A program made the translations under genes and the position numbers. Positions 15,581 to 41,501 of a stretch of 64,000 nt of DNA are shown here, piece after piece. Source of the stretch: Brachionus manjavacas (Eukaryota; Rotifera; Eurotatoria; Ploima; Brachionidae); assembly GCA_019054805.1 (NCBI GenBank), contig JAHQIY010000002.1, positions 5,704,001-5,768,000 of the forward strand. The letters are read 5' to 3'. A model generated the notes under the pieces. That model did no database searches and had not been told where the DNA came from. It saw only the letters and a program-made list of their open reading frames with translations. Positions within the stretch are counted from its first letter, which is position 1, and every line of letters begins with the position of its first letter.

Positions 15581-16490
15581 ATTGAATAAAATATCAGCTC
15601 GGATAGAAATCTTCATTCAGAGTCTAATTATAACTTGATTTTTGTTAAATTTTTAATTGAAACTACAGGTAGATTCAATTGATTTTTTGCCATAAATTAA
15701 ACAAACGTCGACTTGAAATAAGCAAGCACTGCGAAACACTAATGATGTTGCTGTTTTTTTTTTCTGAAGATAGAAATGAAATCAATTAAAAATAGTTTAA
15801 GAAATTTACTTTTGTTAAACTATTTTAAATGTTGAATAATTAAACAAACTTTTAGTTAAAGTCAGTTGATCAACAATATCTAGTCTTGAATTCAATTAAA
15901 ATCCTACTGAAACTTTATTTGAGCATTTAAAAAACCCATTAATTAAAAAACACTTTTCAATTCTAATCGTATATAACATCAAAGTCTATCTAATATAAAT
16001 AACAATTGAAGTTTTATAGATGTTTTTAATTATTTGGTCACGCTTGAGCTGACAAAGCTAATATTTGGTCAAATAAACACAAGAAATACTTTTTTATTTT
16101 CCAACAATTTATTCAAAATTTTTACAAAAATGTTTTAAGTATAGGACTGTTGATCGAAAAATTAATTCGAAATGCATAGAAAAAAATACTGCTATCTAGG
16201 TTATACAATCAAAATACCGGAAAACTAGATCTCTTATATAAATCGGTCTTAAAACAAAATAATAAAAGAAAAAAAAAACTAAATTTTGCTTGAAATTTAC
16301 ATGGAATAAGAAAAAAAAATCTATAAACTCTTTTCAAAAGAAAAATAATTTCTTTTACAACTTTTCGGGCTTAAACAGAAAGTGTGAAAAGAGTTTGGAT
16401 TAATTAATTGATTAAAATAATAAAAATTGTTAATATTTAATCTAAATATTTTGAGCATTAAAAATAAAAAAATTGAAAAAAAAATTTTTT
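15581..16490. other. Spacer and probable 3' UTR of the PIM-like kinase
   Basis: AT-rich; no frame supported. The part nearest 16490 is presumably the 3' UTR of the minus-strand kinase. Confidence 0.35.
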
Positions 16491-17485
16491 TTAATGCTTA
16501 TCGTGACGCTTGAGCCATGCCGAATTCAATAGTTGGTGCAGATTAAATCGTTTCGTAGCGTTCATTTGAAAGCAGCTGTCCAAAAACTGGAGCAAATCAT
16601 TGGAAACATTGGAATAGGGCAGCGGAAACTTTCCACTTATAATTTGAGATTTCGACCTGAACGGGTATTTGCCGAATACTGCAAAGTAGAAAGTGACACC
16701 AATGGACCAGGCCGTAGCAGGCTCGGACTCGTAATATCCGGACAAAATCCACTCGGGCGGCATACACTCCAAAGTACCTTGGAACTCTTTGAAGGACTCG
16801 TTGCGGCCTCGGAAGTTGGCCGCCGAGCCAAAATCAATTATTTTTATCGAGTAGTCCTCGAGATTGACGAGAATATTCTCGGGCTTTATGTCTCTGTGCA
16901 CAATGCCTTTGGCAAAAATGGCCAAATTAATCTTGATCAATTGGATAAACAAGCGTTTTAGGATCGATTGACTAAAGCTAAATGGCTTTCCGTTTGCCAA
17001 GTCGAACAATGTCATGCACTTGTTCAGCTTTTCCATAACAATAACAAAGCAAGTGGTCTCCTCGAAGTAGTCATAGATCTTGACAATGCCAGGAGTGTCG
17101 CGCAATCGAATCAGACACTCGATTTCGAATGGCAAGTAGGAATTGCTGCGCGACGACGGATTGTGCATTGAGGAAAAGTGTTTGTTGGACCAGTTGACTA
17201 TGCCCGATTTGGGAATCAGCTTGATGATAACTGGCAGACCGTCGTCAGACCGTATTCCTTCGTACACGCGGCCGTAGCCTCCAAAACCGATCGATTTTAT
17301 CAACTTATAGGTGGGCTTTTGCGACGGCTGAACAGCAAGAGATGAAAAGGTGTCCGCGTATGAGCCATGCGTGCTGTTCGAGTTAATTCGATCCTCAAGA
17401 GAATTCTAAAATGAGAAAAAAGTATTTTTTTACTTTTTTATTTTCCAAAACTGAATTTTACCGATTTAAAGTTGTATGAGAACAT
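16491..17485 (-). CDS. PIM-like serine/threonine protein kinase
   Basis: Two exons, 17462-17485 (MFSYNFKS) and 16491-17405, with a 56-bp phase-0 intron, encode 312 residues, close to vertebrate PIM1 (313). Kinase landmarks: Gly-rich loop GFGGYGRV (48-55), VIIK lysine K70, alphaC Glu E102, HRDIKPEN (178-185), DFGSA (199-203), and MPPEW (223-227) in place of APE, a PIM hallmark. PTYKLIKSIG and YEGIRSDDGLP also match the PIM start (QVGPLLGSGGF...SGIRVSDNLP). PIM kinases are constitutively active, need no activation-loop phosphorylation, and promote survival and growth. The hinge reads MEKLNK and lacks the proline of vertebrate PIM hinges (ERPEP). The exon is clearly richer in G+C than its surroundings, as is usual here for conserved genes. 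Confidence 0.92.
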
Positions 17486-24094: not shown

Positions 24095-26509
24095 GTGTAG
24101 ATCGCATCGAACATAAATTCAGCGAGACGCTAAGCGACACTTTTCTATATCAGCATGTAAATGTTCCAACATTTCAAATGTCAAACGAAAAAGCTGTCAA
24201 CAATTTGGATTTGATTTTCACGACTATGTCTGGCAATGTGTATGCAATCGATACAAAATTTATGCTTGGTAACATTAATAAATAACATCTGGATATCTTT
24301 TTCAATTTTGTACTCAAAAACAAGGTTAGTAAAGAATCATATATTATTGAAAAATTTATTAATAGTAAAGCTGATTTTGAAAAAATTTCTGATTTTTTAT
24401 CAAATATTAATTGGGTGCACTTATTTGAGAATCTAAATATTCAGGAAATGTACAATGAGTTTATTTTCTATGTCAGCGAAGCTAGTAATCGATTCATTCC
24501 AGTGACGAATGGCTCTAAAAAGAAAAGTATCTCAAAACCTTGGATAAAAGATGATCTCAAGATCTTAATTAGGAATAAAAAAAATCTTAGATACAGGAAC
24601 TGTTCATGTAACTGGAAGGATATGAATCTTTATAATGATTACAAAAGTATCTGTAAATTAGTTTCTTCGGAAATAAAAAGAGCCAGACTAACTTATGAAC
24701 AAAATTTAGTGGATAAAGCTAAGAAGAATCCAAAATTATTATACAAATATCTAAATGATCAACAAGAAATCAGAGAATCAATCAAAGCATTAAAGAAGTC
24801 AGACAATGAAAATAAATGTTTTCAAGATGTCTTTGTTATTGAACAAGATGGGGAGCTTCCACCTTTTGTAGCTGAACTTAATGAAAACTGTTCAGAATAT
24901 ATTGACTTTGAATCAAATGATATTAGTTTTGAAGTTGTTTAAAAAAAAATTACAAGACCTTAATCAAAATAAATCACGTGGTGTTACATCCAAGACAAGC
25001 TACATCCGCTTTTGCTAAAAAACTTTGCAAGCGCCTTTACTGTTCCTTTCACTTTAATTTTCAGAAACTCTTATCTAATAGTCAGCTTCCAATACAGATC
25101 AGCAAATATTACTTTATTGTATAAAATATGTGAAAAATCAACGGCCAGCAATTATCGTCCCGTGTCTTTAACTTCAATTCCGTGCAAAATAATGGAAAGC
25201 ATAATAAGAACCAAAATGGAAGACTATCTTTATAAGAACAATATTATATCTAAAGAACAGCATGGATTTGTCAAGAAAAAGTCATGTACTTCTAATCTTA
25301 TGGAAACTCTAGATTTCATATCAATGATTCTAGACAAAAGTATTCCTGTTGATGTAATTCAGCTAGATTTTGCAAAAGCATTTGAAACTGTTCCGCACAG
25401 ACCACTAATAGCTAAATTGAAAGCGTATGGCTTTGATGGTCTGACACTAAAATGGATTGAAGCTTTCTTGAAAAATAGAAGACAACGAGTTGTTCAAGGT
25501 GAAATTTTGTCGGATTGGGTTGAGATTTTTGGCGGTGTACCACAAGGATCAGTGATTGGTCCACTTTTGTTCGTTTTGTTTATCAATGATCTACCAAAAG
25601 GAATAGAGAATATTGTCAAAATGTATGCAGATGATACTAAAATATTCTCGCAAACGGTATCAGAAATAAACGCAGTGAAACTTCAATCAGATTTAGATTT
25701 AATTTTCAAGTGGACTCAAGATTGGCTTCTTCTCTTTAACACACTTCAATATGTGTGGTTATGCATTATGGTCATAAAAACAAAGAATTCACTTATTTTA
25801 TTAATGGTAAACAGTTATCAACGTCTGAAACCGAAAGAGATCTTGGAGTTATCTTCAATACAAATCTCAAATGGAAAAACAAGTGATAGAGGCTACAAAC
25901 AAAGCAAATCAAATGTTGGGTCGCATCAGGAAATCATTCGCTCGTTTTGATTGTAAGTTATTTAGATCATTGTATTTAACTTTTGTTCGTCCTCTTTTGG
26001 AGTTTTTGGTGCCTGTAAGGTCTCCAATTCTAAAGTATGACTGTGAGAATGTTGAAAGGATTCAATGCAGAGCTACGAAATTTGTTTCTTCAATTAGAAA
26101 CAAACCGTATGAAAGCAGCAGATTGAAGGCTTTGAACATTTCAAATCTGGTGTAAAGAAGAAAAAGAGGTGATGTAATTCAAATATACAAGTTCATGCAT
26201 GGAATAGAATTGGTTTAAAAAGCAACAATTTTAATGTCACAAAAAACCAAGGAAAAAGTCATTGCTTCAAATATCACAAAGAAATTCCGGGTCTCCAACA
26301 TAGAGATAACTTTTTTTTTCAGCAGAACCGCTAACATATAGAACTCGCTGCCAAATCAACTAGTTGAAGCCCCCAATGTTAACAGCTTTAAACCAGGCAT
26401 TGATTGCTGGATGAGCAGAAATCAATCACATCAGCTGTCTTAGTGTGCCTTATTAGCACACTCGCTGGCTTGCCAGCTACAGTCAAAACTACTACTACTA
26501 CTACTAAAT
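24095..26509 (+). mobile_element. CR1-like non-LTR retrotransposon, 5'-truncated and frameshifted
   Basis: Begins inside the apurinic endonuclease domain (FSETLSDTFLYQHVNVPTFQ, 24110-24170, and NNLDLIFTT), then the linker typical of CR1 pol (24415-24942), then a reverse transcriptase (25012-25950) with NYRPVSLTSIPCK, motif A LDFAKAFETVPH (Glu for Asp after AKAF), motif B GVPQGSVIGPLLF at about 25534 and motif C MYADDT at 25621-25638. The C-terminal part continues in another frame at 25871-26155. Frameshifts at an A-run near 24945 and near 25865, plus stops, make it inactive. The 3' end holds two small hairpins (GTGTGCCTTATTAGCACAC; GCTGGCTTGCCAGC) and a terminal (ACT)6 microsatellite. It is the longest element in the window. 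Confidence 0.92.
26492..26509 (+). repeat. (ACT)n microsatellite at LINE 3' end
   Basis: Six ACT units directly after the two 3' hairpins of the LINE, probably the 3'-terminal repeat used in target-primed reverse transcription. A short (TAG)n run with CAG at about 50683-50697 may be the same tail in the opposite orientation. Confidence 0.75.
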
Positions 26510-27622: not shown

Positions 27623-27931
27623 CTAGTTTAATTGATTATTTATCCATTGTTGCAAAAGGAATCTATATAAGATATTGTCTAATTTATTGGAATCTCGTAA
27701 ATCAGTAGATTCTTTTGAATTGATATTTTCAGTTTTTGAATTGAATTTTTTACCTAATGCTAGTAATTGTTTGAGTTTCAGAATATCATCGGATTTTTCT
27801 AAGTTTTCGAGACCTTTGAATGATCTTTTACCGTTTCTTGGCAAATAAATTCCATCATTTGAACTAAAAAATTGACCATTTGATTCAATTATAATAATTG
27901 TAACCATTATAACAATAAAATATAGTTTCAT
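27623..27931 (-). CDS. Neuropeptide precursor with N-terminal LPRN-amide peptide
   Basis: 102-residue single-exon frame starting at ATG 27931. Signal peptide 1-19 is followed directly by QFFSSNDGIYLPRN (20-33) and the amidation/cleavage site GKR (34-36), so the predicted product is a 14-mer with pyroglutamate and C-terminal Asn-amide. The remainder is a Lys/Asn-rich spacer without other dibasic-amide sites. One peptide immediately after the signal peptide is also the layout of AKH/GnRH-type precursors, whereas the PRN-amide end recalls neuromedin U/PRX-amide peptides; neither assignment is secure. The gene at 28861-29229 encodes a clear paralogous peptide. Confidence 0.82.
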   Translation of the reverse strand: MKLYFIVIMVTIIIIESNGQFFSSNDGIYLPRNGKRSFKGLENLEKSDDILKLKQLLALGKKFNSKTENINSKESTDLRDSNKLDNILYRFLLQQWINNQLN

Positions 27932-28860
27932 TTTTCTAAATAAAAATTTAATGAAATTTTATCAACTAAATTCGGTAGAAAAAAAAGGCTATTAATGATT
28001 GAAATCGTAAGCTTAAATTCTAAAAGTAATGACTTGTTTTGGATTTTTTAAACTCAGCTCTATTTTCACCTTTATTTATATCTTAAATATTTAGATTTAA
28101 AATCTATCACCTTAATAGCTATGCTTTTTAAATAAAATTTTTCATAAATTAATTAGATTTTAAAATATCGTTTTCTAATATTCGACTTGCAAAAAAAATT
28201 ACGCAAAAAATAAAATTAAAAAAAAATTGAAAACCCTTTTAAATAGTATCAAATGAGATTTGGTTCAATTTTCGTGAGGGAAGATTGATTAAAAAAACAT
28301 AGAATATTCTGTTGGCGGCTGTCGCCATGAGATAAGATAGACAATTTAGATTGTCTCCAAGTTCTTATTAAATTGTTTCTATGACTAGGAAAGAATATTA
28401 GTTTTATATTGAATTTGATTATTGCTTAAACAAGCTTAAAAGACAATTTTTTTCATCTTTTCCATCAGGGTGCCGGCTCAAAAGTTTAAAGCTGGTCTAC
28501 AACTATTCATTTAAACTATTCTTAGCTAAATAAACTTATCAAATTTGTGTGCATTTTTTAACAATTTTTGACTAAAAAAGGAATTTATACGCATTGAAAA
28601 TAAATGATGGATGACCAGATTTTTAAAAGGTTTTGGTTTGATTTTTTAAGGCGAATTTGTTTTAAAACAAAAAATCAAGACGAAAGTAAGAACTATTTAT
28701 TTTTCAATGCTTAGACGATTATATCCCAAATGATTTATTAAAATGGTACAAAATTTTATTAAAAATTAATGAATTAGGTTAATTGAAGCTGATAGACAAA
28801 AGCACATAAACAAAATCAATTAGGTTTTTGTGTCCATTTTGATGTTCCCTTTAATGGAAA
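27932..28860. other. Spacer between the two neuropeptide genes
   Basis: AT-rich promoter-side sequence of the 27623 gene and 3' flank of the 28861 gene; no further frame. Confidence 0.35.
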
Positions 28861-29229
28861 TCATTTTTTTAGGAAATATTTTTTGTACAACTCTTTGGGA
28901 AGAACCAAATTTTGTTGGTTTGAAAATATTTCTTCACTTGACTCATTTTCATCATCTTCAAAGTCTGAAAGCCTTTTTGAGAATTGCTTGTAAAATTTTC
29001 TCATTGTTGATAGTTTGTCTAATTGACGAAAATCGTCTCGACTCACCGAAGAATCGCTCTCGACTTGGGCCGAGGACAAAGTCGACGGTTTCAATTTCAA
29101 CAAATTGTACAAATAGGATCGTTTGCCAAGGCGGCCTACAGTGATACCATCCGTAGCGCTGAAATATTGAGCGTTGATGTGAGATACTATTAGAAAAACA
29201 CCCAACACAGTAAGACAAAAGTTTTTCAT
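28861..29229 (-). CDS. Neuropeptide precursor with N-terminal VGRL-amide peptide
   Basis: 122-residue single-exon frame from ATG 29229. Signal peptide 1-20, then QYFSATDGITVGRL (21-34) and GKR (35-37), predicting a pyroglutamyl 14-mer with Leu-amide. The peptide aligns without gaps to that of the gene at 27623: Q-aromatic-F-S-x-x-D-G-I-x-V/L-x-R. The spacer contains a further KR (about 84-85) and an acidic stretch and ends in KK. The two genes are 0.9 kb apart on the same strand, a tandem duplication. This copy is richer in G+C than its partner. No family name is assigned. Confidence 0.85.
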   Translation of the reverse strand: MKNFCLTVLGVFLIVSHINAQYFSATDGITVGRLGKRSYLYNLLKLKPSTLSSAQVESDSSVSRDDFRQLDKLSTMRKFYKQFSKRLSDFEDDENESSEEIFSNQQNLVLPKELYKKYFLKK

Positions 29230-29999
29230 TTTTGAATTTTTTCTAAAATTAATAAAAAAATTATACCTTATTAAAAAATAACTTCTTTTAATGATATTTC
29301 TAATTTATATAAGAAACTGTTTTTTTGAAAGCGGAAATTTTCTATTTATAATTAAAATTGATAGAAATTTCGTCTGATTTATCAACAGTTCCTATAGCTC
29401 TTCAAGTTTAAATTTAAAATTTGTTCTCTTGGCTAATTCATTTCCTCAAATGATTCTTAACAACTAATTAGATTTAATTAAATTTAAGTTAAGTTTATTG
29501 ACGCTAGAGATTAAAAAATTTGCTGTGCCGGAAGAAATATTCAAGAATTTTCCTATTTGTTTATTGTGAGAAAAAGATTTTGTAGGAAAATGATTAGCTT
29601 CCTTAACGCGCTACTTTAAAGATTTATTTTTATTTCGATATTTTAAAAAATTGATTATGGAAAATAAAATGCTCTTTAATAGGTATAAAAGCAAAATTAG
29701 TTGTATTTTATGATTTATTGGCAAAAAATAAGTCTAATTTAACACTATTTTTATTATCTTACTAAAGTTTACTACAAATATGAAAGTAAAATTTGATTAA
29801 AATAAACGAAATTTAATCAACTAGACTCCAAAGAGACAAATTTCATTATAGCTCAAAATAAAAAATTCTTCAGTCTTTATGATGAAAACTTGAATATATA
29901 TTTTGATCTGAAAAAAAGACTGAAAAAAAATTTACTCCAAAAAATGATATTATTTGAGTTATGTTAACTCCCTCTAAAAAATTAAATTAAATTTATCAA
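29230..29999. other. Intergenic; nothing recognised
   Basis: Promoter-side region of the 28861 gene; AT-rich, no frame supported. Confidence 0.35.
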
Positions 30000-32267: not shown

Positions 32268-32600
32268 CACACGTGAAGCAATTAAGCTCGATGCAATACT
32301 AAATAGTATTGGTCAGCTTAAATTGGATCTTAAGCGTCATTTTTACTCACGTGACGGAATCTCGGACTCTATTGAGCTTTGTTTGAATAACTTAAGATTT
32401 AAATCTTTTCAAATACTTCTAAATGAATTAATAAACCAAATTAAGTCAGTTCACTCCTTCTGGTCCAGGAAGGTTTTTATAAATAACTATACATTTTCTT
32501 CTATTTTTATTTTTTTTTCTTTATGCAAAACTAATTTTATTTTTACTTTACTTCTCCTGATGGAGGTTAATTTGAATTAAATAAATAAATAAATAATTAA
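32268..32600 (+). mobile_element. Probable 3' end of an unidentified non-LTR retrotransposon
   Basis: A frame of about 75 codons from about 32270 reads TREAIKLDAILNSIGQLKLD, then RHFYSRDGISDSIELCLNN and SFWSRK, followed by a pyrimidine-rich 3' UTR, the motif TCCTGATGGAGG and a terminal (AAAT)n tract at 32578-32597. The plan (coding end, T-rich UTR, short hairpin-like tail, A-rich simple repeat) parallels the L1x elements, but the sequence is different. Family unknown. Confidence 0.5.
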
Positions 32601-33187
32601 GGTTTTGAGAATCTGTTTATTTCTGTAAAATGACTTTCAGGCGTTGTTTTCAAATGAGATTGATTATCAATTATCATATTCCGTCACTCTAGTCGATATA
32701 CTCATTGTATTCTTAATTTTAATCCGGAACCATTATTTAGGATCGAATTCCTTTTTCAAAAGTTATCCCACGCAATATCTTGCAAGGGTTTATGATTTAT
32801 TTTACCAAGAATAGAAATAAAGAAATAGAATTTTTAAATTTTTTTTTAATTTTCTTATATGATGTCATAATATTGAATAGCGGTAGGACTAATAGATACT
32901 GAAAAAAAGAGTTAAATTTCAAAATTGAAAGCATCTAAAATCGCAATCAAATTAAAAAAAAATGACACTATAGCATTTTAAAAATCTTTTTTTTTCGATT
33001 CTTGATAGTTGAATTAATATTTTTAAAGCGAACCTTAAAGTATCGTTGTAAAACATATAAAAAATCGAATTTAAATTTTTAAGTGGTCTGATCAAGTTTT
33101 TAAAATTTTATTATTTAAGTCGTTAACAAAAAATTAAAGCTTTTTTTTTAGAAATGATCAAAATTAAAAATAAAAGATTAAAATTTT
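32601..33187. other. Spacer and probable 3' UTR of the deaminase-like gene
   Basis: AT-rich, no frame. Confidence 0.35.
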
Positions 33188-34630
33188 TTATATTTTTTGT
33201 TTTTTAGTATCATCTTCTAAATTATCATCATTTTTTCTTTTTTGTCGTTTTTTTAGACAAACAAAACTTTTGTTTGTCAAGTCGAACCCGTGATTATTAA
33301 TTTCAGATTCTTTTCTATAATAAAATTCAATAATTGAATTAATTCTGAAATTTGTGTTTAATTTCACCTGCTCATACATATTTTGCTTTAAATATTCATT
33401 TTTTTCGTTTATGTTTGGCCAAATTTCATTTTTAAACAAGTTTTTAGATAAAAAAATTTTATAATTAGCAAAAACTTGACATAAATCATTTTTATTTTTA
33501 AAGACCCTACTCAGATCCATTGATATTAGTTTTTTTTTCAATAAACGCTTCCAATAAATATACTGATTATCGATCCATTCATCTGAATAGGGAATTTCTT
33601 CACTATAAACTTTATTATCCTCTTGATAATTTTTGTCTTTTAATAAATTATAAACGAACTCTAGTTCTTGGCTCAGCTTTTTGTAGAACAAATGAATCCG
33701 ATCAGATTGGTATTTGATTACTTCGTGGTCAAATCTTGGCAATTTCCAAAATCGACTACTGCACATATTATTTTTAGCTCCGTAGTATTTAAGGCCAAGA
33801 TTTTTCAGCACCAGATTGCATAGAACACAGCAATCGCTTGATATGCTGACATAATTGTTGTTTTGATCAATTTCATTTAAGTATTTTGAAACTAGTTGAA
33901 TTTCACAGTGTAAACCATAAAACGGTGTGTTATTCGGATCCAAAATTATAAGTTCAGTATCTTCAAAGCAGTAAAAATCTTTCATAAAATAATAGAAAAC
34001 AGTAAGGTAGAAATAAAATAAAGCCGAATCTCGGAGTGCATTCTGTGTTTTTTCATCTAAATCAAGAAAATTCACGGTCCAAATATTTTCCATATGTTTT
34101 GCCCATTGTTCAAAAACTTCACTTCCATCCGAACAAAATTCTACTTCAGCACCTAAATTTAATTTTTCCAAGCAATAATTTAGAGATTTACTTAAATTTG
34201 AAAATTTAAAATTTAAAATATCTAAAAAATTTGCTTCAATATTTGTTTTGTGAATCAAATCCTTACTGTCTATTTCATAACCAATTAGACTAAATAAATC
34301 TTTACATCGCTGTTTTAATTTTTGAGCATTTTTGTTTGATGTTATTATTAATTTTTTAACTTTTTGAATTTTGTAATCAGACGAAAAATTCAACTTGAAA
34401 TAAACAGCACAGTGTATTGTTACTTGGTCTTTATCAGAACTTTTCTTGATATTTAAACATCTTGTTAACGAGTCCATAACAAACAAGTCTAATCGTTTGT
34501 TGTAGTCTACGTGTATTGATTTATCCTTATCGTTTAAATTTATGTTATCATGTTTAAATGTTTTGATTAAACTTTGAATTTTAGATAATAAATAGTCAGC
34601 ATATTCGTTTTTCTTATTCCGGCTTTGCAT
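33188..34630 (-). CDS. Putative OTT_1508-like nucleic acid deaminase
   Basis: Intronless 480-residue frame from ATG 34630. Residues 241-243 are HCE within YGLHCEIQLVSKYL, and C268-V-L-C271 lies in ISSDCCVLCNLVLKNLGL: the zinc ligands (His, Cys, Cys) and catalytic Glu of the cytidine deaminase fold. What follows, SSRFWKLP (291-298), matches the ending of the OTT_1508-like family (pattern HAEIQLL...SSK..CFLC.LF...HG...Y..W.LP), known from fungi, some protists and Orientia and related to deaminases of bacterial polymorphic toxins. The N-terminal 240 residues are helical with no other domain seen. The C-terminus is strongly basic (KKRQKRK...KKQK), compatible with nuclear import. No signal peptide. 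Substrate unknown. Lack of introns among intron-rich neighbours suggests transfer or retrocopying. Confidence 0.75.
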   Translation of the reverse strand: MQSRNKKNEYADYLLSKIQSLIKTFKHDNINLNDKDKSIHVDYNKRLDLFVMDSLTRCLNIKKSSDKDQVTIHCAVYFKLNFSSDYKIQKVKKLIITSNKNAQKLKQRCKDLFSLIGYEIDSKDLIHKTNIEANFLDILNFKFSNLSKSLNYCLEKLNLGAEVEFCSDGSEVFEQWAKHMENIWTVNFLDLDEKTQNALRDSALFYFYLTVFYYFMKDFYCFEDTELIILDPNNTPFYGLHCEIQLVSKYLNEIDQNNNYVSISSDCCVLCNLVLKNLGLKYYGAKNNMCSSRFWKLPRFDHEVIKYQSDRIHLFYKKLSQELEFVYNLLKDKNYQEDNKVYSEEIPYSDEWIDNQYIYWKRLLKKKLISMDLSRVFKNKNDLCQVFANYKIFLSKNLFKNEIWPNINEKNEYLKQNMYEQVKLNTNFRINSIIEFYYRKESEINNHGFDLTNKSFVCLKKRQKRKNDDNLEDDTKKQKI

Positions 34631-37110
34631 TTTGTCACAAAAAATTGTGCTAATTTCACAGTTAAATTGAATATTTAAATTAATTTTTTGGGCTTATATT
34701 TTAGTTGTTAAGAATGATGCATTTTCGTCTTTTTTTTTATTAAAATCTTAATATGTTATTATCTGAATATTTAAATTTGAGAAAATTACGAAATAATTAA
34801 AATCTTCCATTCTAATTGAAGAAATTTTTTATTTCCATAGTTACCTTGATAAAAATAAGATATAATATCAAAAAAAAATCAAAACTAGAAAAAAGAAGAA
34901 TATCTCTATTTCAAAATTTTGAATATTTTCTTATTTCAATTAAAAAAAATTCAATTATTAACAACAACTTAAGATTTTTTTTCTTTTTGTTAGAAAAAAT
35001 GATTAGTTTAGATAAAAAATTATTATCTTATTCAAATTTTAAAGTCTAAGTCACAATTAATATTTTTTCAAATTTTGATTTAAATGCCATTTTAATAATT
35101 TCTTTTTTATATGCTTTCTTCTACTTCAGCCCATTTATAATAGAATTAAATTGAATTAAATTTAAATGTAAAAGTGTATGTTTCTTTTTAAGGCCAGTTT
35201 AAGTAATTTTGAATATGTGCTAAAAAATCTACAGTTTTGAAAAAAGGTTATCTTTGATAAAATTTTTCGTCAGAAGCTAGTATCCAAACTAAATATTATG
35301 GAGCAAAAGGTAAATTGTTGAACAACAGGCAAGCTCAAGTTTTTCATGATTTTAAGACAACTAAATTATGCGTATTATCTGAAGTTAAAAGGTTCTTGCG
35401 ATCTTCCTAAACTAATTGCAAAAAACTTCAAGATGATTTGGGCCTTGCATTGGAATGGAAAAATATTTGGTCGATTGAATTCAATTTAAAAAAAAGTGAT
35501 GAATCTAAAAAAATCATGAACAATCAAATTTTAGACACATTTTAGAAGGCTTGGACAGAGCTAAAGGTTAAATAAACAATTAATAATTCGATTTGCAGAC
35601 AAATTTTCTCATTTTCTAAATAGGGTTGAATTTCCTAAATCTCCAAATACGAATTATCAATTACGTAGCAATATACTTTTTTCTGTAGAGTGTCTTAAAA
35701 TGACAATGGCCTAAAACTTAGAGGTGGTCAAAAGAAAATTTTAATTTTTTGATTTCTAAATTTAGAATTTTTGAAAAAAAAAGCAAAAACAATTGTTAAA
35801 TATTTCCTACTTTAATTTCAGCTTTTAACTTAATATCTTGATCCAAGATTTTTTTAAATTCCATTTTGTTGACGAGCTTTTTTTCTTAAAAATTTTTAAT
35901 TTCTAAATAAAATATTCGATCTTTAACTCTCAACAGCCTAAGGTGTTATTTCGACCCTTTTTGATGCTTTTGTTGCTCTTTACTTTACATATTTTATAAT
36001 TTGGCATTTTTTAGCAATCAAATTTAAAATTAAAAAAATATTATAATCCAAAAATTTTTTTATTTTCTGTAAAAAAAAAATTTACAATTAATTTAAAAAA
36101 ATGGTTTTTTTTGGAATCATTTTTTTTTGGTAAAAATAAATTAAAGACCAAATCGTTAAAATTTCAAATTCTTCTTTAATTAAAAATTTATATCAACAAA
36201 ATTCAAAAAATTGTATCAACTAAACTAATCATATTTCTCAAATGAAAACTCTGATAATGAAGAAACTGAAGAAACTAAAATTTTTTGGATAAAAATAGAT
36301 AAAAATTCGAAAAATGGAATATTCAGTTCCTAAAATTTCATTTGTAAAACAAGACATACTAGATTTTATCGGTTTACTTTATAAAAGAGGTATTGATGCT
36401 CAAAGGTTCCTCTAAAAGCAATTAGGTCAAGAATTATGGAGCAAGGATGATTGAAAAATTTATGACAAGAAACAAGATTTGGTGAATAAAATCGTACAGT
36501 CTAAGACTCCTTTTATTCTGATTGTTTCTAGAAAGTGCTTAGCAAGCACTAAACCTGATTCAGCTCCATCATCTGCAAAAAAAGGTAAAATTAAGATATC
36601 TAAGAAAATCGAGATTTATTTGTGAGAAATGCAAAAAATTTAAATTTGATCCTTGTGGAGCGCAAAAATTTGAAAAATCAATTTTTCAAAATTGTTCCGA
36701 TCACAGACTGAGGATTTAGATAAAATCATTATTTTCTTTAGATAAAGAAAATTTTTCAATTTTTTTTTTTAATTTTGACCAAAATGTTGAAATAATTTTT
36801 TCTGGAAGAATAACAAAAAAGCGAGTGTTAAACTCAATATTTAATAGTTTTCCAACAGATTTTTAATTATTGTTTTTTGTATTCTCACAAAAATAATAGA
36901 ATAATAAAAGTTAATTTATTTAAATTTTATTAAAATAAATGATTTCCAAATTTCCCATTCATGAAAGACATTCATTTAATCCGTAATCATAAATTTTTCT
37001 ATTCAAAATTTTCAAATATGCTTCAAAATGCTGGGGTTTTGTTTAAAGGTTCCATTCTGAAATATCCGGAATTTTAATTAATAAATTTATTAGACAGATG
37101 TTTAGAAATC
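34631..37110. other. Intergenic with decayed coding-like fragments
   Basis: Two interrupted stretches on the plus strand look like former coding sequence: near 35415-35560 (KKLQDDLGLALEWKNIWSIEF, NLKKSDESKK), which recalls the post-YADD region of LINE reverse transcriptases, and near 36370-36615 (IGLLYKRGIDAQRFL, KIVQSKTPFILIVSRK). Both contain stops. Below 37110 lies the TMEM181 3' UTR. The 77-codon frame at 34816-35049 is low-complexity and not called. Confidence 0.4.
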
Positions 37111-40100
37111 TTACACCACATCTTCTTCATCTGTTTCATTAAGCATAGCAAATGTTGGATTGTCAGCATAGTCAGAGTCTTTTTAAATTAGATAAAATGA
37201 CTTGTTTAAATTAGCAAAAATTTGAATCTACCTTTTGAAGCATTTTTTGCCGGAGAGTAAACATAAGCCAAAGTATGCATGTAAATATTAATTATTGAGA
37301 ATAGTGCGCAACATTCGGTCGTATTGCGGTAATTCTTAGTAAAGTTTTCGAAAAGACTCTGTTTAAATGAATCACTTTTAAGCCTCATTAATGCTATTAT
37401 CAATAGTGAGAAAATCACTATTAGCATCATAATCGAAGCAAATTTTATGCGAATTCCTAAAAAAAAATTAGACTAGAGGAAAATAATCGCATAGATCTAT
37501 TTACCAAAATAGGGCATTTTTTTCAACTCAGCAACAGCTCTAACCATTAAATACAACAAAAATAATAAGTAAACTATCAAAAAAAAGAAAAGTAGAATCC
37601 TGAAGACCTATGATTGAATTTGATTTTATTTTTAAAAATTTTCTTTTTAACAATCCAACTTACAAAATAATAATTCTCATCTATTGATAAATTGTAAGAA
37701 GGATCATTTAGTGATCTGAATCGCTGCCAAAGAAGCAAAAATAGAGAAATCAGCCATATTGAGAATACAATTACGAATTTTGGTATGTAAAAAGTCGTGA
37801 AATTTCGATCATTCTTTGAATTTAACAATTAATTGAAAATTTAGATTTTTTTTCAAATCATACATGTCTAAATCCATGGAAAATACTTAACCAAAAAACC
37901 ATTAACAAAGCTAAAAATGTCGATTGAAATACGGCGTCTAATAGATGTGGTATCCAACTATCTACCAACACGATCAACGGAAGTAGAGGGTCTTGAAAAA
38001 AATAAAAATTAAATATTTAAAAAAAAAAAGTGTTGAAAGATTTAAATAGGTGTTTTTTGATGCAATAAAAAAAACTTTTTATTAGCAAACGGAACAGCTA
38101 AAAAAGATTAAAAAGCTATACTGTTGTTTTTTAATTTGAGAATTTCCAAATCTCACAAGCTAAGATAATTTCATGGGTAAATTATATGATTTCGAAACAG
38201 AAATTTTAAATCTTTATCTTTATTAAAAATTGTACAAGACTTTTTTTTTGGCAACTTTAGGAACATTTTTAAGGTTAAAGGCAAACCTTAAAAGTTAAGG
38301 ACTGTACATTTTTTTTATCCCTGTCTCAAGAGCTATGATTTCTCTTCTAACTCTAGAAATGAAAAAATCGGCTTTTATCATTTTAATATATTTAGATTAT
38401 ATTTTTATAAGACCCATGCTATCTAATTTAATTATTGAATGTTTTTTCAAAAATAAAAATTAACTCATTTTAACTAGGATAAATTTCCTTTAAAAAACAA
38501 ATTAACTAAATTGAAGTGTTTTTATTATGCATCAAAAATTTTCGTCTATTAATTAAAAAAATCAAATTTACTATTGAAGAATATCAACGATCTGAGAAGT
38601 ATAAAAATCCATTTCTGTTCAATTGACCAGTCTCGTAAAGAAAATTTTTTTAATGAATTAGTATAAAGTATCTTTTAAAAAAATGTTATTTTAAAATAGA
38701 TAGTTTAGCTTAGATGTGCACTTACCAAAACGATTAATGTGATAAATAAAAATGTAAATCGATACCAAAGTTCTAGTTTAGTAAAAGACGGATTGTAACT
38801 ATTGAACTAAAAAATTTAAAAAAAATGATGAAAATAATTCAATTTTTTATTTACTTTGAATAAAAAATTTTCTATATTAAAATTTTCCAAGTCATCTATA
38901 TTTAAAAATTTCAGTTCGAGGCGATATTTTTCATTGTGAAGATAATCCAAGTGAAGTATATTGAACACATCACAAATCTTTAGATAAAATGATGCTAAGT
39001 AAAAAAACATTTAAAATAAAAAAGCCATGGTTGATTTTGGATGAATAAAAATTTATTTGATTTTTAATTTGTAAATTTTTAGAAAGCCATTAATTAAAAA
39101 CATATTTTTTTAATAAAAAGCATTCTTCTACTTTCTACAAAAGACAAAATCATTTCAGGTCTGGAGTATTATCAAGTTTAGTAAATAAATAACAAAAAAT
39201 TTCACATAAACAAAATTTTTGAGAGATCATTTGAAATTTTTAAGAGTCACAATTTAATAAGCTCTGCTAAATTGATAGGGAGATGGTTGATACTGATTTT
39301 GGTAACTAGCCGAGTATCCTGTGCTTCCATATCGGGTCTGAGTTTGCTGTTGCGGTGGATAAACATTAGTATAGTTGTATTGAGCGCTTAAAGCTTGTTG
39401 CTGCTGATCTGGTTGCTGACTGTCTTCGTATTGAACCGGTGCAACAACAAAATTTTGCTGCTGATTTAATTGTGTCTGAGATCCTTGTGACAATCTAGTT
39501 TCAGATAGATTAGCCTGGTATTGCCGAGAAAGAGTCTGCTGGGCTTGAGATGAAGTAGGCTGAGTTTGGTAAGTGTAGGACATGGCTGGATCGGCAGCGT
39601 TAGAAGCTGGAGCAGGTAGAGCTTGAACAAATTGTTGCTGATGACTGCTTGGATACGATCTTGAGGCCACTCGAACCACTAGTGGATTTATCAATGGCTT
39701 TCTGGGCTTTCCAATGATGGTTCTGTCTTTGTACTGAGCTGGTGGAGTCCCTGGTCTTTCGATTACCAAATTGACTACATCTCGTTGAGGCTTGACAACA
39801 AACACCCGTTCTACAATATCAGGAGTTGGAGTTGGTAATCTACGGACTATTTGTTGCACTTTTCCCGGAGCACCAGGGACTGTTATTACTTGTCGTTTGA
39901 TGACCGGCTGTCTACGCTGACTCGTAGCAGCCTCATAAGCAGCTTCAATTTGAGGAGTCATGTCCTCGTTTCGGGGATAGGCGCTTGGCTGATTGTAGCC
40001 ATAGGCATCAGTAGTATATGTCTGAGCGCCGTATGAACCAATGTTAGCGCCGTATCCCTGATAACCTGTGTTGTATCCACTGTTACCGTATCCAGCTACA

Positions 40101-41501
40101 GGAAGGTTGGAGCCAAAATTTTCACTTTCCGATGTAGTTGAGTATGTAGGTCCATTGTAGTAGTTTGGCTGTGACGACATTCTATAGGCTGATGCACCGC
40201 CATAGCTTGCTAGACCTGCCGATGGTGGGTATGCTTGATAAAATTGTTGAACACTTGTTTGCTGAGGGATCGCGAATTGTCCGTAATAAGCCATGGTTAT
40301 TTAATTTGGATGACGTAGAAAAGTTGAATTTTACAAGACTAAATTAATTCTTAGGAATTTATCTTATCTCTAATAAGCAAGATTTAGGCAAAGTCAGCTT
40401 GTCTCTTGAATAAGAGATTTCAAATTTTTTTTATAAAGAATAAAAATATCACAAAAATATTTCAACTTATTTTTATATTTGAAATTTTTGTAATTTTTGC
40501 GTCTAGTTTTTTTAGTCAAAACATTTTCGAGTAGTAATCAATCAAGCGTTAAGCAATTTATTTTAACTTTAGTTGGTACTCGAGCAAAGTTACATTTGTG
40601 AGACTGAAAAAGACATAGACGAGCTAAAACAACAACAACCGAAAAAAAGAGGGCATAATAATTAAATTTTCCAAAGCATGACCAAATCGTACATTGACTT
40701 GGAAAAAAATTCATTTGTGACACCATAATTCAATGGTCTAAATTAACTAGTTTTTAATTTTTCAAAATAATTTTCTATTATCTATCTGTCCGACTTATAT
40801 CAACTTAGCCTAATTTCCAAAACTCAATTTGTCAAAATTATATTTTTTTAATATTATGTATCTTTTGTTTAGAGATATTTGTAAAGCAGCCAACCATGGC
40901 TATGAGACAAAATTAACCGAGTTTTTTTTAAATTCATTTCACATGCAATTTTGCTATTTCATTTAACTTACCTCATTTCTACAGTGAATATTCCGCGAAC
41001 GATTCAAAAATTCCAACTGCTGGTCCTCGGCAGTGAGATGCCGAATGCTCAGAGTAAACTGCTTGATAAATTCTTCTTTGCGACCTTGGATAATCGGTTG
41101 ACCTGTCAACCATAATTGTTGATGAAATTTTCCTAGATTAGGCGATTCGAAAATAATTGCGCTTGGCTAAATAAATAATTTTAAAATCCAAATCTTTCAT
41201 ATTTTTTTAATACCTTTAAAATTTCTTCTCTAGTCAAATTAGATGCAATTGTTGTGAGCATTTTTGGACCTATGTAGACAATTTAAAAAAAAATGGATTG
41301 AAATTTTACAGCTTACCAAACATTCCAATGGTAGTGGTGAGAAAAAAAGCACTGAAAAAACATATAAAAACTATCAAAATTTGATGCTTTTGCATCGAGT
41401 ACAAACGCAGTTTGATTGATCTTTAATTGAAAATGTGTATTGCCGAGAATTTAGTGACCTAAAGAAACTTACACTCCGTAATCGGAATAGATAGACTTCA
41501 T
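37111..41501 (-). CDS. TMEM181: TMEM181 homologue, seven-transmembrane GOST-type protein
   Basis: Twelve minus-strand exons: 41473-41501, 41317-41420, 41214-41269, 40972-41166, 38855-38977, 38726-38806, 38572-38671, 37864-37991, 37664-37813, 37505-37607, 37232-37456 and 37111-37178, all in phase; 453 residues. Similarity to animal TMEM181 is continuous: LRLYSMQKHQILIVF near the N-terminus (first TM), the luminal domain with QQLWLTGQP, then YNPSFTKLELWYRF, FSLRDWSIEQKW, FYIPKFVIVFSIWL, NDPSYN, HTLAYVYSPAKNAS and the acidic tail NPTFAMLNETDEED. TMEM181 belongs to the GOLD-domain seven-TM (GOST) group with TMEM87 and Wntless, at the Golgi or plasma membrane; its cellular role is poorly known. 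Most introns are about 45-60 bp, but intron 4 is about 2 kb and contains another gene (39254-40294). Confidence 0.93.
39254..40294 (-). CDS. Gln/Tyr/Pro-rich protein with conserved core, nested in TMEM181 intron
   Basis: Intronless 346-residue frame from ATG 40294, on the same strand as TMEM181 and wholly inside its intron 4. The N-terminal ~120 residues are Tyr/Gly/Ser/Gln-rich (repeated YG, GYN and YQ) and the C-terminal ~130 are Gln-rich; both look disordered. Between them, residues about 128-210 are a regular Pro/Val/Arg-rich core (QVITVPGAPGKVQQIVRRLP, TPTPDIVERVFVVKPQRD, VVNLVIERPGTPPAQ, GKPRKPLINPLVVRV) with the look of a conserved domain. No signal peptide or TM. I cannot name the family; a cytoskeletal or RNA-granule scaffold is possible from composition only. 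It is distinctly richer in G+C than the surrounding intron, as expected for a functional gene. Confidence 0.8.
   Translation of the reverse strand: MAYYGQFAIPQQTSVQQFYQAYPPSAGLASYGGASAYRMSSQPNYYNGPTYSTTSESENFGSNLPVAGYGNSGYNTGYQGYGANIGSYGAQTYTTDAYGYNQPSAYPRNEDMTPQIEAAYEAATSQRRQPVIKRQVITVPGAPGKVQQIVRRLPTPTPDIVERVFVVKPQRDVVNLVIERPGTPPAQYKDRTIIGKPRKPLINPLVVRVASRSYPSSHQQQFVQALPAPASNAADPAMSYTYQTQPTSSQAQQTLSRQYQANLSETRLSQGSQTQLNQQQNFVVAPVQYEDSQQPDQQQQALSAQYNYTNVYPPQQQTQTRYGSTGYSASYQNQYQPSPYQFSRAY

What the first reader, a model, noticed from the sequence alone, without database searches (positions are those of the whole stretch)
33188..34630. Animal-genome OTT_1508-like deaminase, intronless and apparently intact
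Seen: HCE at 241-243 and CVLC at 268-271 with the downstream W-x-LP element, in one uninterrupted 480-codon frame with a basic C-terminus. Known: this combination marks the OTT_1508-like deaminases, related to nucleic-acid-modifying toxins of bacteria and found mainly in fungi, protists and some bacteria. Inferred: a laterally acquired or lineage-expanded nucleic acid deaminase, possibly for RNA/DNA editing or defence against mobile elements, which are abundant here.
Basis: partly seen in the sequence, partly recalled or inferred. Interest (0 to 1): 0.88.

Follow-up and report, generated by a model that had tools for sequence, protein, structure and literature searches.

The report
Rotifer gene for OTT_1508-like deaminase
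A rotifer (microscopic animal) chromosome carries one intact, conserved gene for a nucleic-acid-editing type of enzyme that is otherwise studied in fungi, where it drives an antiviral RNA-editing switch; what it edits in the animal is untested.

Summary
One 480-codon frame (33188-34630, minus strand) carries H241-C-E243, C268-VL-C271 and W295-K-L-P298; Pfam OTT_1508_deam (PF14441) matches above its curated cut-off (34.9 against 27 bits, E 1.5e-8). The 114-Mb genome shows this one copy only. Five relatives were found. One is Brachionus plicatilis BpHYR1_030046, whose gene model is fused to a neuropeptide-like gene that lies about 4 kb downstream here (91% over 112 aa), so the gene belongs to a Brachionus-like chromosome and is not contamination. 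All six proteins keep the catalytic residues; 36 of 60 positions in residues 241-300 are invariant. Fungal-type relatives share only this core; flanks show no detectable similarity, and one reverse profile test failed. In Neurospora, relatives (OLD) are A-to-I mRNA editors of an antiviral switch (PMC12754623). Most likely the rotifer protein is an active, probably nuclear RNA deaminase. Adenosine as substrate and a defence role are inferred; the fungal neighbour gene was not found.

The parts
33188..34630 (-). OTT_1508-like deaminase gene, 480 codons plus TAA stop, one uninterrupted frame
33737..33913 (-). PF14441 deaminase core, residues 240-298
   Evidence: searches (34.9 bits; 38.7 bits), cut-off 27
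33902..33910 (-). H241-C242-E243: predicted zinc-ligand His and catalytic Glu
   Evidence: invariant in 6 of 6 sequences; roles recalled from the general HxE...CxxC deaminase signature
33818..33829 (-). C268-V-L-C271: predicted zinc-ligand cysteines
   Evidence: both invariant in 6 of 6; 24-25 residues between E and the first C in all six
33737..33748 (-). W295-K-L-P298 element
   Evidence: W295, K296 and P298 invariant in 6 of 6; paired with W-x-LP of the fungal-type set in the full-length hhalign run, (the core-only alignment stops before it)
34301..34483 (-). N-terminal conserved block, residues 50-110, no Pfam family above cut-off
   Evidence: 21 of 61 positions invariant; no detectable match to fungal-type N-termini; Pfam
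33575..33592 (-). PYSDEW motif, residues 347-352
   Evidence: invariant in 6 of 6
33191..33253 (-). basic C-terminal tail (possible nuclear localisation signal), residues 460-480
   Evidence: basic cluster in the last 50 aa of 5 of 5 proteins examined (P0001 left out because its model is fused); each expected in about 19-28% of shuffles

Best explanation
It is a vertically kept rotifer gene for an active, zinc-dependent nucleic-acid deaminase of the OTT_1508 type. H241, C268 and C271 hold a zinc ion and E243 activates water, as in HxE/CxxC deaminases generally (inferred from the conserved signature). The protein is probably brought to the nucleus by its basic tail and binds its substrate through its own conserved N-terminal half. 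It most likely converts adenosine to inosine in selected RNAs, as its fungal relatives (OLD) do. Shown here: the gene, its single copy, family membership of the core, conservation, and a neighbourhood shared with B. plicatilis. Inferred: catalysis, RNA and adenosine as substrate, nuclear location, and any link to a virus or stress response.
For: PF14441 above cut-off in the window protein and in 5 of 5 relatives. It is the only PF14441 match reported in the six-frame genome, although seven PF02137 and ten PF00383 matches are. Predicted zinc and catalytic residues are invariant in 6 of 6; 36 of 60 positions in 241-300 are invariant against 2 of 124 in 357-480, the latter lowered by the fused P0001 tail and by gaps. 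Profile-profile match of the core to 40 fungal-type proteins over 40 columns, from HxE through CxxC: 88.6% probability, E 2.6e-6. The rotifer profile matches 116 of 120 fungal-type proteins at E up to 10 against 3 of 600 shuffles, though weakly (best 14.5 bits; the 12 rows I saw all lie on the core). B. plicatilis gene model joining this gene to the same neuropeptide-like neighbour. OLD proteins edit A to I in mRNA (PMC12754623, parts 1 and 2 of 3).
Against: No structure could be predicted. The reverse profile test failed: with a full-length profile of the fungal-type set the best score was a shuffled sequence (7.8 bits), the best rotifer-type protein seen scored 3.2 and the window protein -0.4. 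The full-length profile-profile comparison gave only 15.3% probability, E 0.0017. Flanking regions are not detectably shared with the fungal-type set, so substrate recognition may differ. No zinc-finger partner and no convincing UAG-interrupted gene were found in the window. The genome already has ADAR/ADAT1-type matches, so an A-to-I role would be an extra one. No expression or activity data.
Confidence: 0.55

Rival explanations
1. It deaminates cytosine (to uracil) in RNA or single-stranded DNA and acts as a mutator against viruses or transposons, like the APOBEC enzymes of vertebrates.
For: The HxE/CxxC site does not by itself tell adenosine from cytosine (recalled); a reverse-transcriptase stretch and two dispersed repeats lie near the gene.
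Against: The functionally studied OTT_1508-type enzymes in the papers I read are A-to-I RNA editors (PMC12754623). One copy only, whereas mutator families are often expanded (recalled).
Confidence: 0.2
2. It is a housekeeping modifier, for example of one tRNA or of a nucleotide pool, without a defence role.
For: One copy, a neighbour shared with B. plicatilis, strong conservation of the core across six sequences; ADAT-type tRNA editing is called the ancestral state of eukaryotic A-to-I editing (PMC13327615, section 5).
Against: Identity to the window protein falls to about 40% in the most distant members and the C-terminal quarter is nearly unconserved, which I judge more divergent than expected of a tRNA editor; PF00383 and PF02137 matches are present besides.
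Confidence: 0.18
3. It is a domesticated remnant of a bacterial effector or toxin gene without enzymatic activity today.
For: Several eukaryotic deaminase families are traced to bacterial toxin-related systems (PMC13327615, section 5, citing Iyer 2011, which I could not read); the frame has no intron.
Against: The four predicted catalytic residues are invariant in 6 of 6, which a dead enzyme would not be expected to keep.
Confidence: 0.05
4. Contamination, or cargo of a mobile element.
For: The gene lies between two different dispersed repeats.
Against: It sits at about 5.7 Mb in a long contig; the B. plicatilis gene model joins it to the same neighbour; one copy is seen in the genome while each flanking repeat stretch has 40 further matching pieces; its base composition is AT-rich like its flanks.
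Confidence: 0.02

Closest known systems
PF14441 proteins P0001 (Brachionus plicatilis BpHYR1_030046, 'hypothetical protein') and P0002-P0005
   Same: Relatives along most of their length, 38-72% identity in the alignment, same catalytic residues, same PYSDEW and N-terminal block
Fungal OLD (OTT_1508-like deaminase) of the OLD-ZAO antiviral editing system
   Same: Same deaminase domain with HxE...CxxC (OLD as described in PMC12754623; window protein). In fungal-type PF14441 proteins fetched by motif, HxE, CxxC and W-x-LP come in the same order; these are not the Neurospora OLD proteins themselves
   Different: HCE here, HAE in the fungal-type protein shown; N- and C-terminal regions not detectably related to the fungal-type set; no zinc-finger neighbour and no convincing UAG-interrupted neighbour found; one copy
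OTT_1508-like deaminase of Leishmania mexicana (LmxM.32.1760)
   Same: Same annotated domain name in another eukaryote group (passages of PMC12315365)
   Different: Sequence not compared here; in the passages seen only its expression change is reported
ADAR / ADAT (PF02137, PF00383)
   Same: Deaminases with a zinc site; the HxE...CxxC motif is said to be conserved in Tad2 and ADARs (PMC12754623)
   Different: The window protein matches neither family at E up to 10; separate matches of both exist in this genome

Membership tests
OTT_1508-like deaminase (PF14441) | Match to the curated profile above the gathering score | tested here: met
   34.9 bits against 27; 5 of 5 relatives also above it
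OTT_1508-like deaminase (PF14441) | HxE ... CxxC zinc-deaminase signature | tested here: met
   H241, E243, C268, C271 invariant in 6 of 6
OTT_1508-like deaminase (PF14441) | W-x-LP element after the cysteines (recalled as a family feature) | tested here: met
   W295 and P298 invariant in 6 of 6; paired with fungal-type W-x-LP
OTT_1508-like deaminase (PF14441) | Deaminase fold bringing the four residues together | not testable with these tools
   structure prediction switched off
OLD-ZAO antiviral editing system | Adjacent zinc-finger transcription factor gene | tested here: not met
   two short C2H2-like matches in 64 kb, neither in a listed open frame of 90 aa or more; a simple pattern scan that would miss spliced or unusual fingers
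OLD-ZAO antiviral editing system | Neighbour transcript with an editable premature UAG | tested here: inconclusive
   one frame of 150 codons or more with one or two internal TAG, 16455-17168 (+), antisense to the kinase; ten controls gave 0 (nine) or 1 (one); introns not handled
OLD-ZAO antiviral editing system | A-to-I activity on hairpin RNA and induction by virus | not testable with these tools
   needs an enzyme assay and RNA sequencing of challenged animals
ADAR (PF02137) | A_deamin domain | tested here: not met
   no such match at E up to 10

The most novel reading that the evidence does not exclude
Rotifers own a third kind of animal RNA editor besides the ADAR/ADAT and APOBEC kinds: an OTT_1508-type A-to-I enzyme with its own N-terminal RNA-recognition half, used as a regulated switch in response to viruses or stress, in parallel to the fungal OLD-ZAO module.
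Probability: 0.25. Interest if true: 0.9.

Novelty: new member of a known kind. Interest (0 to 1): 0.62.

Why it matters
[quoted passage not shown] A conserved PF14441 gene in rotifers means that at least one animal group carries the deaminase family behind the newest fungal editing system. Brachionus is a laboratory animal (recalled), so the substrate can be tested directly by matched DNA and RNA sequencing and by gene removal.

Tried and rejected
Virus and prokaryote collections were scanned with the rotifer alignment: 27 and 594 pattern matches, none confirmed by tblastn. The patterns used lie outside the catalytic core, so this says little about distant bacterial relatives. NCBIfam (five proteins) and PADLOC (three proteins) gave no match at E up to 10. 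PHROGs gave weak, inconsistent matches (three proteins): window protein E 0.38 and P0004 E 0.33 to families of unknown function, P0005 to a head-morphogenesis family at E 0.002 in residues 313-389, outside the core, and to another family at E 4. I rejected these because no family is shared between the three. A PDB sequence search gave one match at E 0.18 to an ATPase subunit outside the core. Sub-threshold Pfam lines (a glycosyltransferase at E 0.081; Imm41 at E 0.018 for P0001) were not pursued. A repeat search around the gene gave only AT-rich, low-identity families and pairs among those listed. The fungal full-length profile did not separate rotifer-type proteins from shuffles. N-terminal and C-terminal regions compared between the two sets: no match (E 0.45 and 0.47).

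Papers: Iyer 2011 is not held and is recalled only; Honda 2025 was seen only through PMC12754623. Seven paper searches were made. The term OTT_1508 is in five held papers and PF14441 in none. Of the five, PMC12754623 was read in parts 1 and 2 of 3, PMC13327615 in passages and section 5, PMC12315365 in passages, PMC10711317 and PMC5640708 in the listing only. None of what I saw describes a rotifer or other animal member. PMC3701536 and PMC11342252 were looked at in passages and did not bear on the gene.

Full report
What is there. The frame 33188-34630 on the minus strand encodes 480 aa from ATG to TAA. The stop-to-stop frame is 501 codons; 20 first-order Markov resamples of the window had at most 151. 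Pfam finds OTT_1508_deam (PF14441) at residues 240-298, 34.9 bits against a cut-off of 27, E 1.5e-8; the only other line at E up to 10 is a sub-threshold glycosyltransferase match.

Where it is. The window lies at 5.70-5.77 Mb of contig 2 of a 114-Mb assembly of 61 contigs. Of ten neighbouring open frames scanned with Pfam, six matched a family: two EF-hand proteins, a kinase, a reverse transcriptase, an LRR protein and a neurotransmitter-gated channel. Two neuropeptide-like precursors are my reading by eye of signal peptide plus GKR sites. The best relative is Brachionus plicatilis BpHYR1_030046 (84% identity over 81% of the query). The tail of that database protein is 91% identical over 112 aa to the product of window ORF 28861-29304, the gene about 4 kb downstream. 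The B. plicatilis model is thus most likely a fusion of two neighbouring genes, which incidentally shows the same neighbourhood in a second Brachionus assembly. For practical purposes this excludes contamination. I infer that the host is Brachionus or very near it and did not identify it further.

Copy number and surroundings. The protein and the Pfam profile each find one place in the genome. The downstream flank holds a dispersed repeat (32284-32606; 40 further matching pieces at 74-96% identity, 40 of 214 candidates scored). The upstream flank holds another (about 35891-36191; 40 further matching pieces at 66-79%, 40 of 52 candidates scored, one of the 40 pieces lying elsewhere in the flank). 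The gene itself is not repeated, so it is not obviously cargo of either.

Conservation. Five relatives were found with the rotifer query at E up to 10, among the 7987 candidates scored. Four of them were found again with the core region alone, among 32 candidates; P0005 was not. All five carry PF14441 above cut-off. Only P0001 is named; 'rotifer-type' for the other four is my inference from similarity. The six sequences align from the first Met, which supports the start codon and fits a gene without introns, though I could not check splicing in any of them. H241, C242, E243, Q245, C267, C268, C271, W295 and P298 are invariant in 6 of 6. Invariant positions: 36 of 60 in residues 241-300, 9 of 12 in 345-356, 21 of 61 in 50-110, and 2 of 124 in 357-480 (the last count is depressed by the fused P0001 tail and by gaps). 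The E-to-C spacing is 24-25 residues in all six. The pattern is what an active enzyme would keep. Nucleotide sequences of the relatives were not available, so dN/dS was not computed.

Comparison with fungal-type members. With a motif query of my own I obtained 120 listed proteins of 401; all 120 listed rows carry PF14441, and the named ones are fungi by their genus names. Forty representatives were compared with the rotifer-type set. The catalytic cores align: hhalign 88.6%, E 2.6e-6 over 40 columns from HxE through CxxC; full-length 15.3%, E 0.0017, with HxE, CxxC and W-x-LP paired. The rotifer profile matches 116 of 120 fungal-type proteins at E up to 10 against 3 of 600 shuffles, best 14.5 bits. 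In the other direction the fungal-type full-length profile fails: its best score was a shuffled sequence at 7.8 bits, the best rotifer-type protein seen scored 3.2 and the window protein -0.4. N- and C-terminal regions show no similarity. So membership rests on the broad Pfam model and the core, and the rest of the protein is the rotifer-type group's own as far as these comparisons reach.

Mechanism. In Neurospora, OLD proteins with this domain convert UAG to UIG in the transcript of the adjacent zinc-finger gene zao in connection with virus infection (PMC12754623, parts 1 and 2 of 3 read). By analogy the rotifer enzyme most likely deaminates adenosine in RNA. Basic clusters in the last 50 residues of 5 of 5 proteins examined suggest a nuclear protein (each occurs by chance in 19-28% of shuffles). 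The fungal genomic arrangement was looked for and not seen: two C2H2-like matches in 64 kb, neither in a listed open frame, and one TAG-interrupted frame, antisense to a kinase. Membership in OLD-ZAO is therefore not claimed. The genome has PF02137 (ADAR/ADAT1-type; three separate places, seven matches) and PF00383 (ten matches) besides, so this would be an additional deaminase, not a replacement for a missing ADAR.

Print. The searches OTT_1508 and PF14441 listed five and zero papers; nothing I saw of the five is about a rotifer or other animal member (two of them seen in the listing only). PMC13327615 (section 5 read) says that the bacterial OTT system is not found in eukaryotic lineages other than through its similarity to fungal OLD; the rotifer gene, and the Leishmania annotation in PMC12315365, speak against that as a statement about the domain family. 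B. plicatilis BpHYR1_030046 bears a precomputed PF14441 label, so the sequence is public but, as far as these searches show, undescribed.

Verdict. Observation confirmed; family confirmed at the level of the catalytic core; function inferred. A new member of a known kind in an unexpected lineage, worth a direct editing test.

Noticed in passing
window 32284-32606: Dispersed short repeat about 320 bp long with 40 further matching pieces at 74-96% identity across many contigs; 40 of 214 candidates scored.
   Followed up: partly
window 35891-36191: A second, more diverged dispersed repeat, about 300 bp, matching pieces at 66-79% identity.
   Followed up: partly
window 27623-27958 and 28861-29304, minus strand: Two neighbouring neuropeptide-like precursors (read by eye), each with a signal-peptide-like start and a DGI...G-KR site; the second is 91% identical over 112 aa to the tail of B. 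plicatilis BpHYR1_030046.
   Followed up: partly
P0001 (Brachionus plicatilis BpHYR1_030046): Public gene model joins the deaminase to the downstream neuropeptide-like gene and lacks the deaminase's C-terminal part; probably an annotation error, a true frame break not excluded.
   Followed up: partly
window 24286-26155, plus strand: Reverse transcriptase (RVT_1 in 24973-25947) with neighbouring and overlapping frames that look like a broken retroelement.
   Followed up: no
window 39254-40300, minus strand: Long open frame (348 codons stop to stop) for a Tyr/Gln-rich protein without a Pfam match at E up to 0.01.
   Followed up: no
G000 C1:5119314-5120335, C5:3129053-3129781 and C5:3637955-3640066: Three places with ADAR/ADAT1-type A_deamin (PF02137) matches in this genome; the last has stop codons inside one or two matches, which may be introns.
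   Followed up: no
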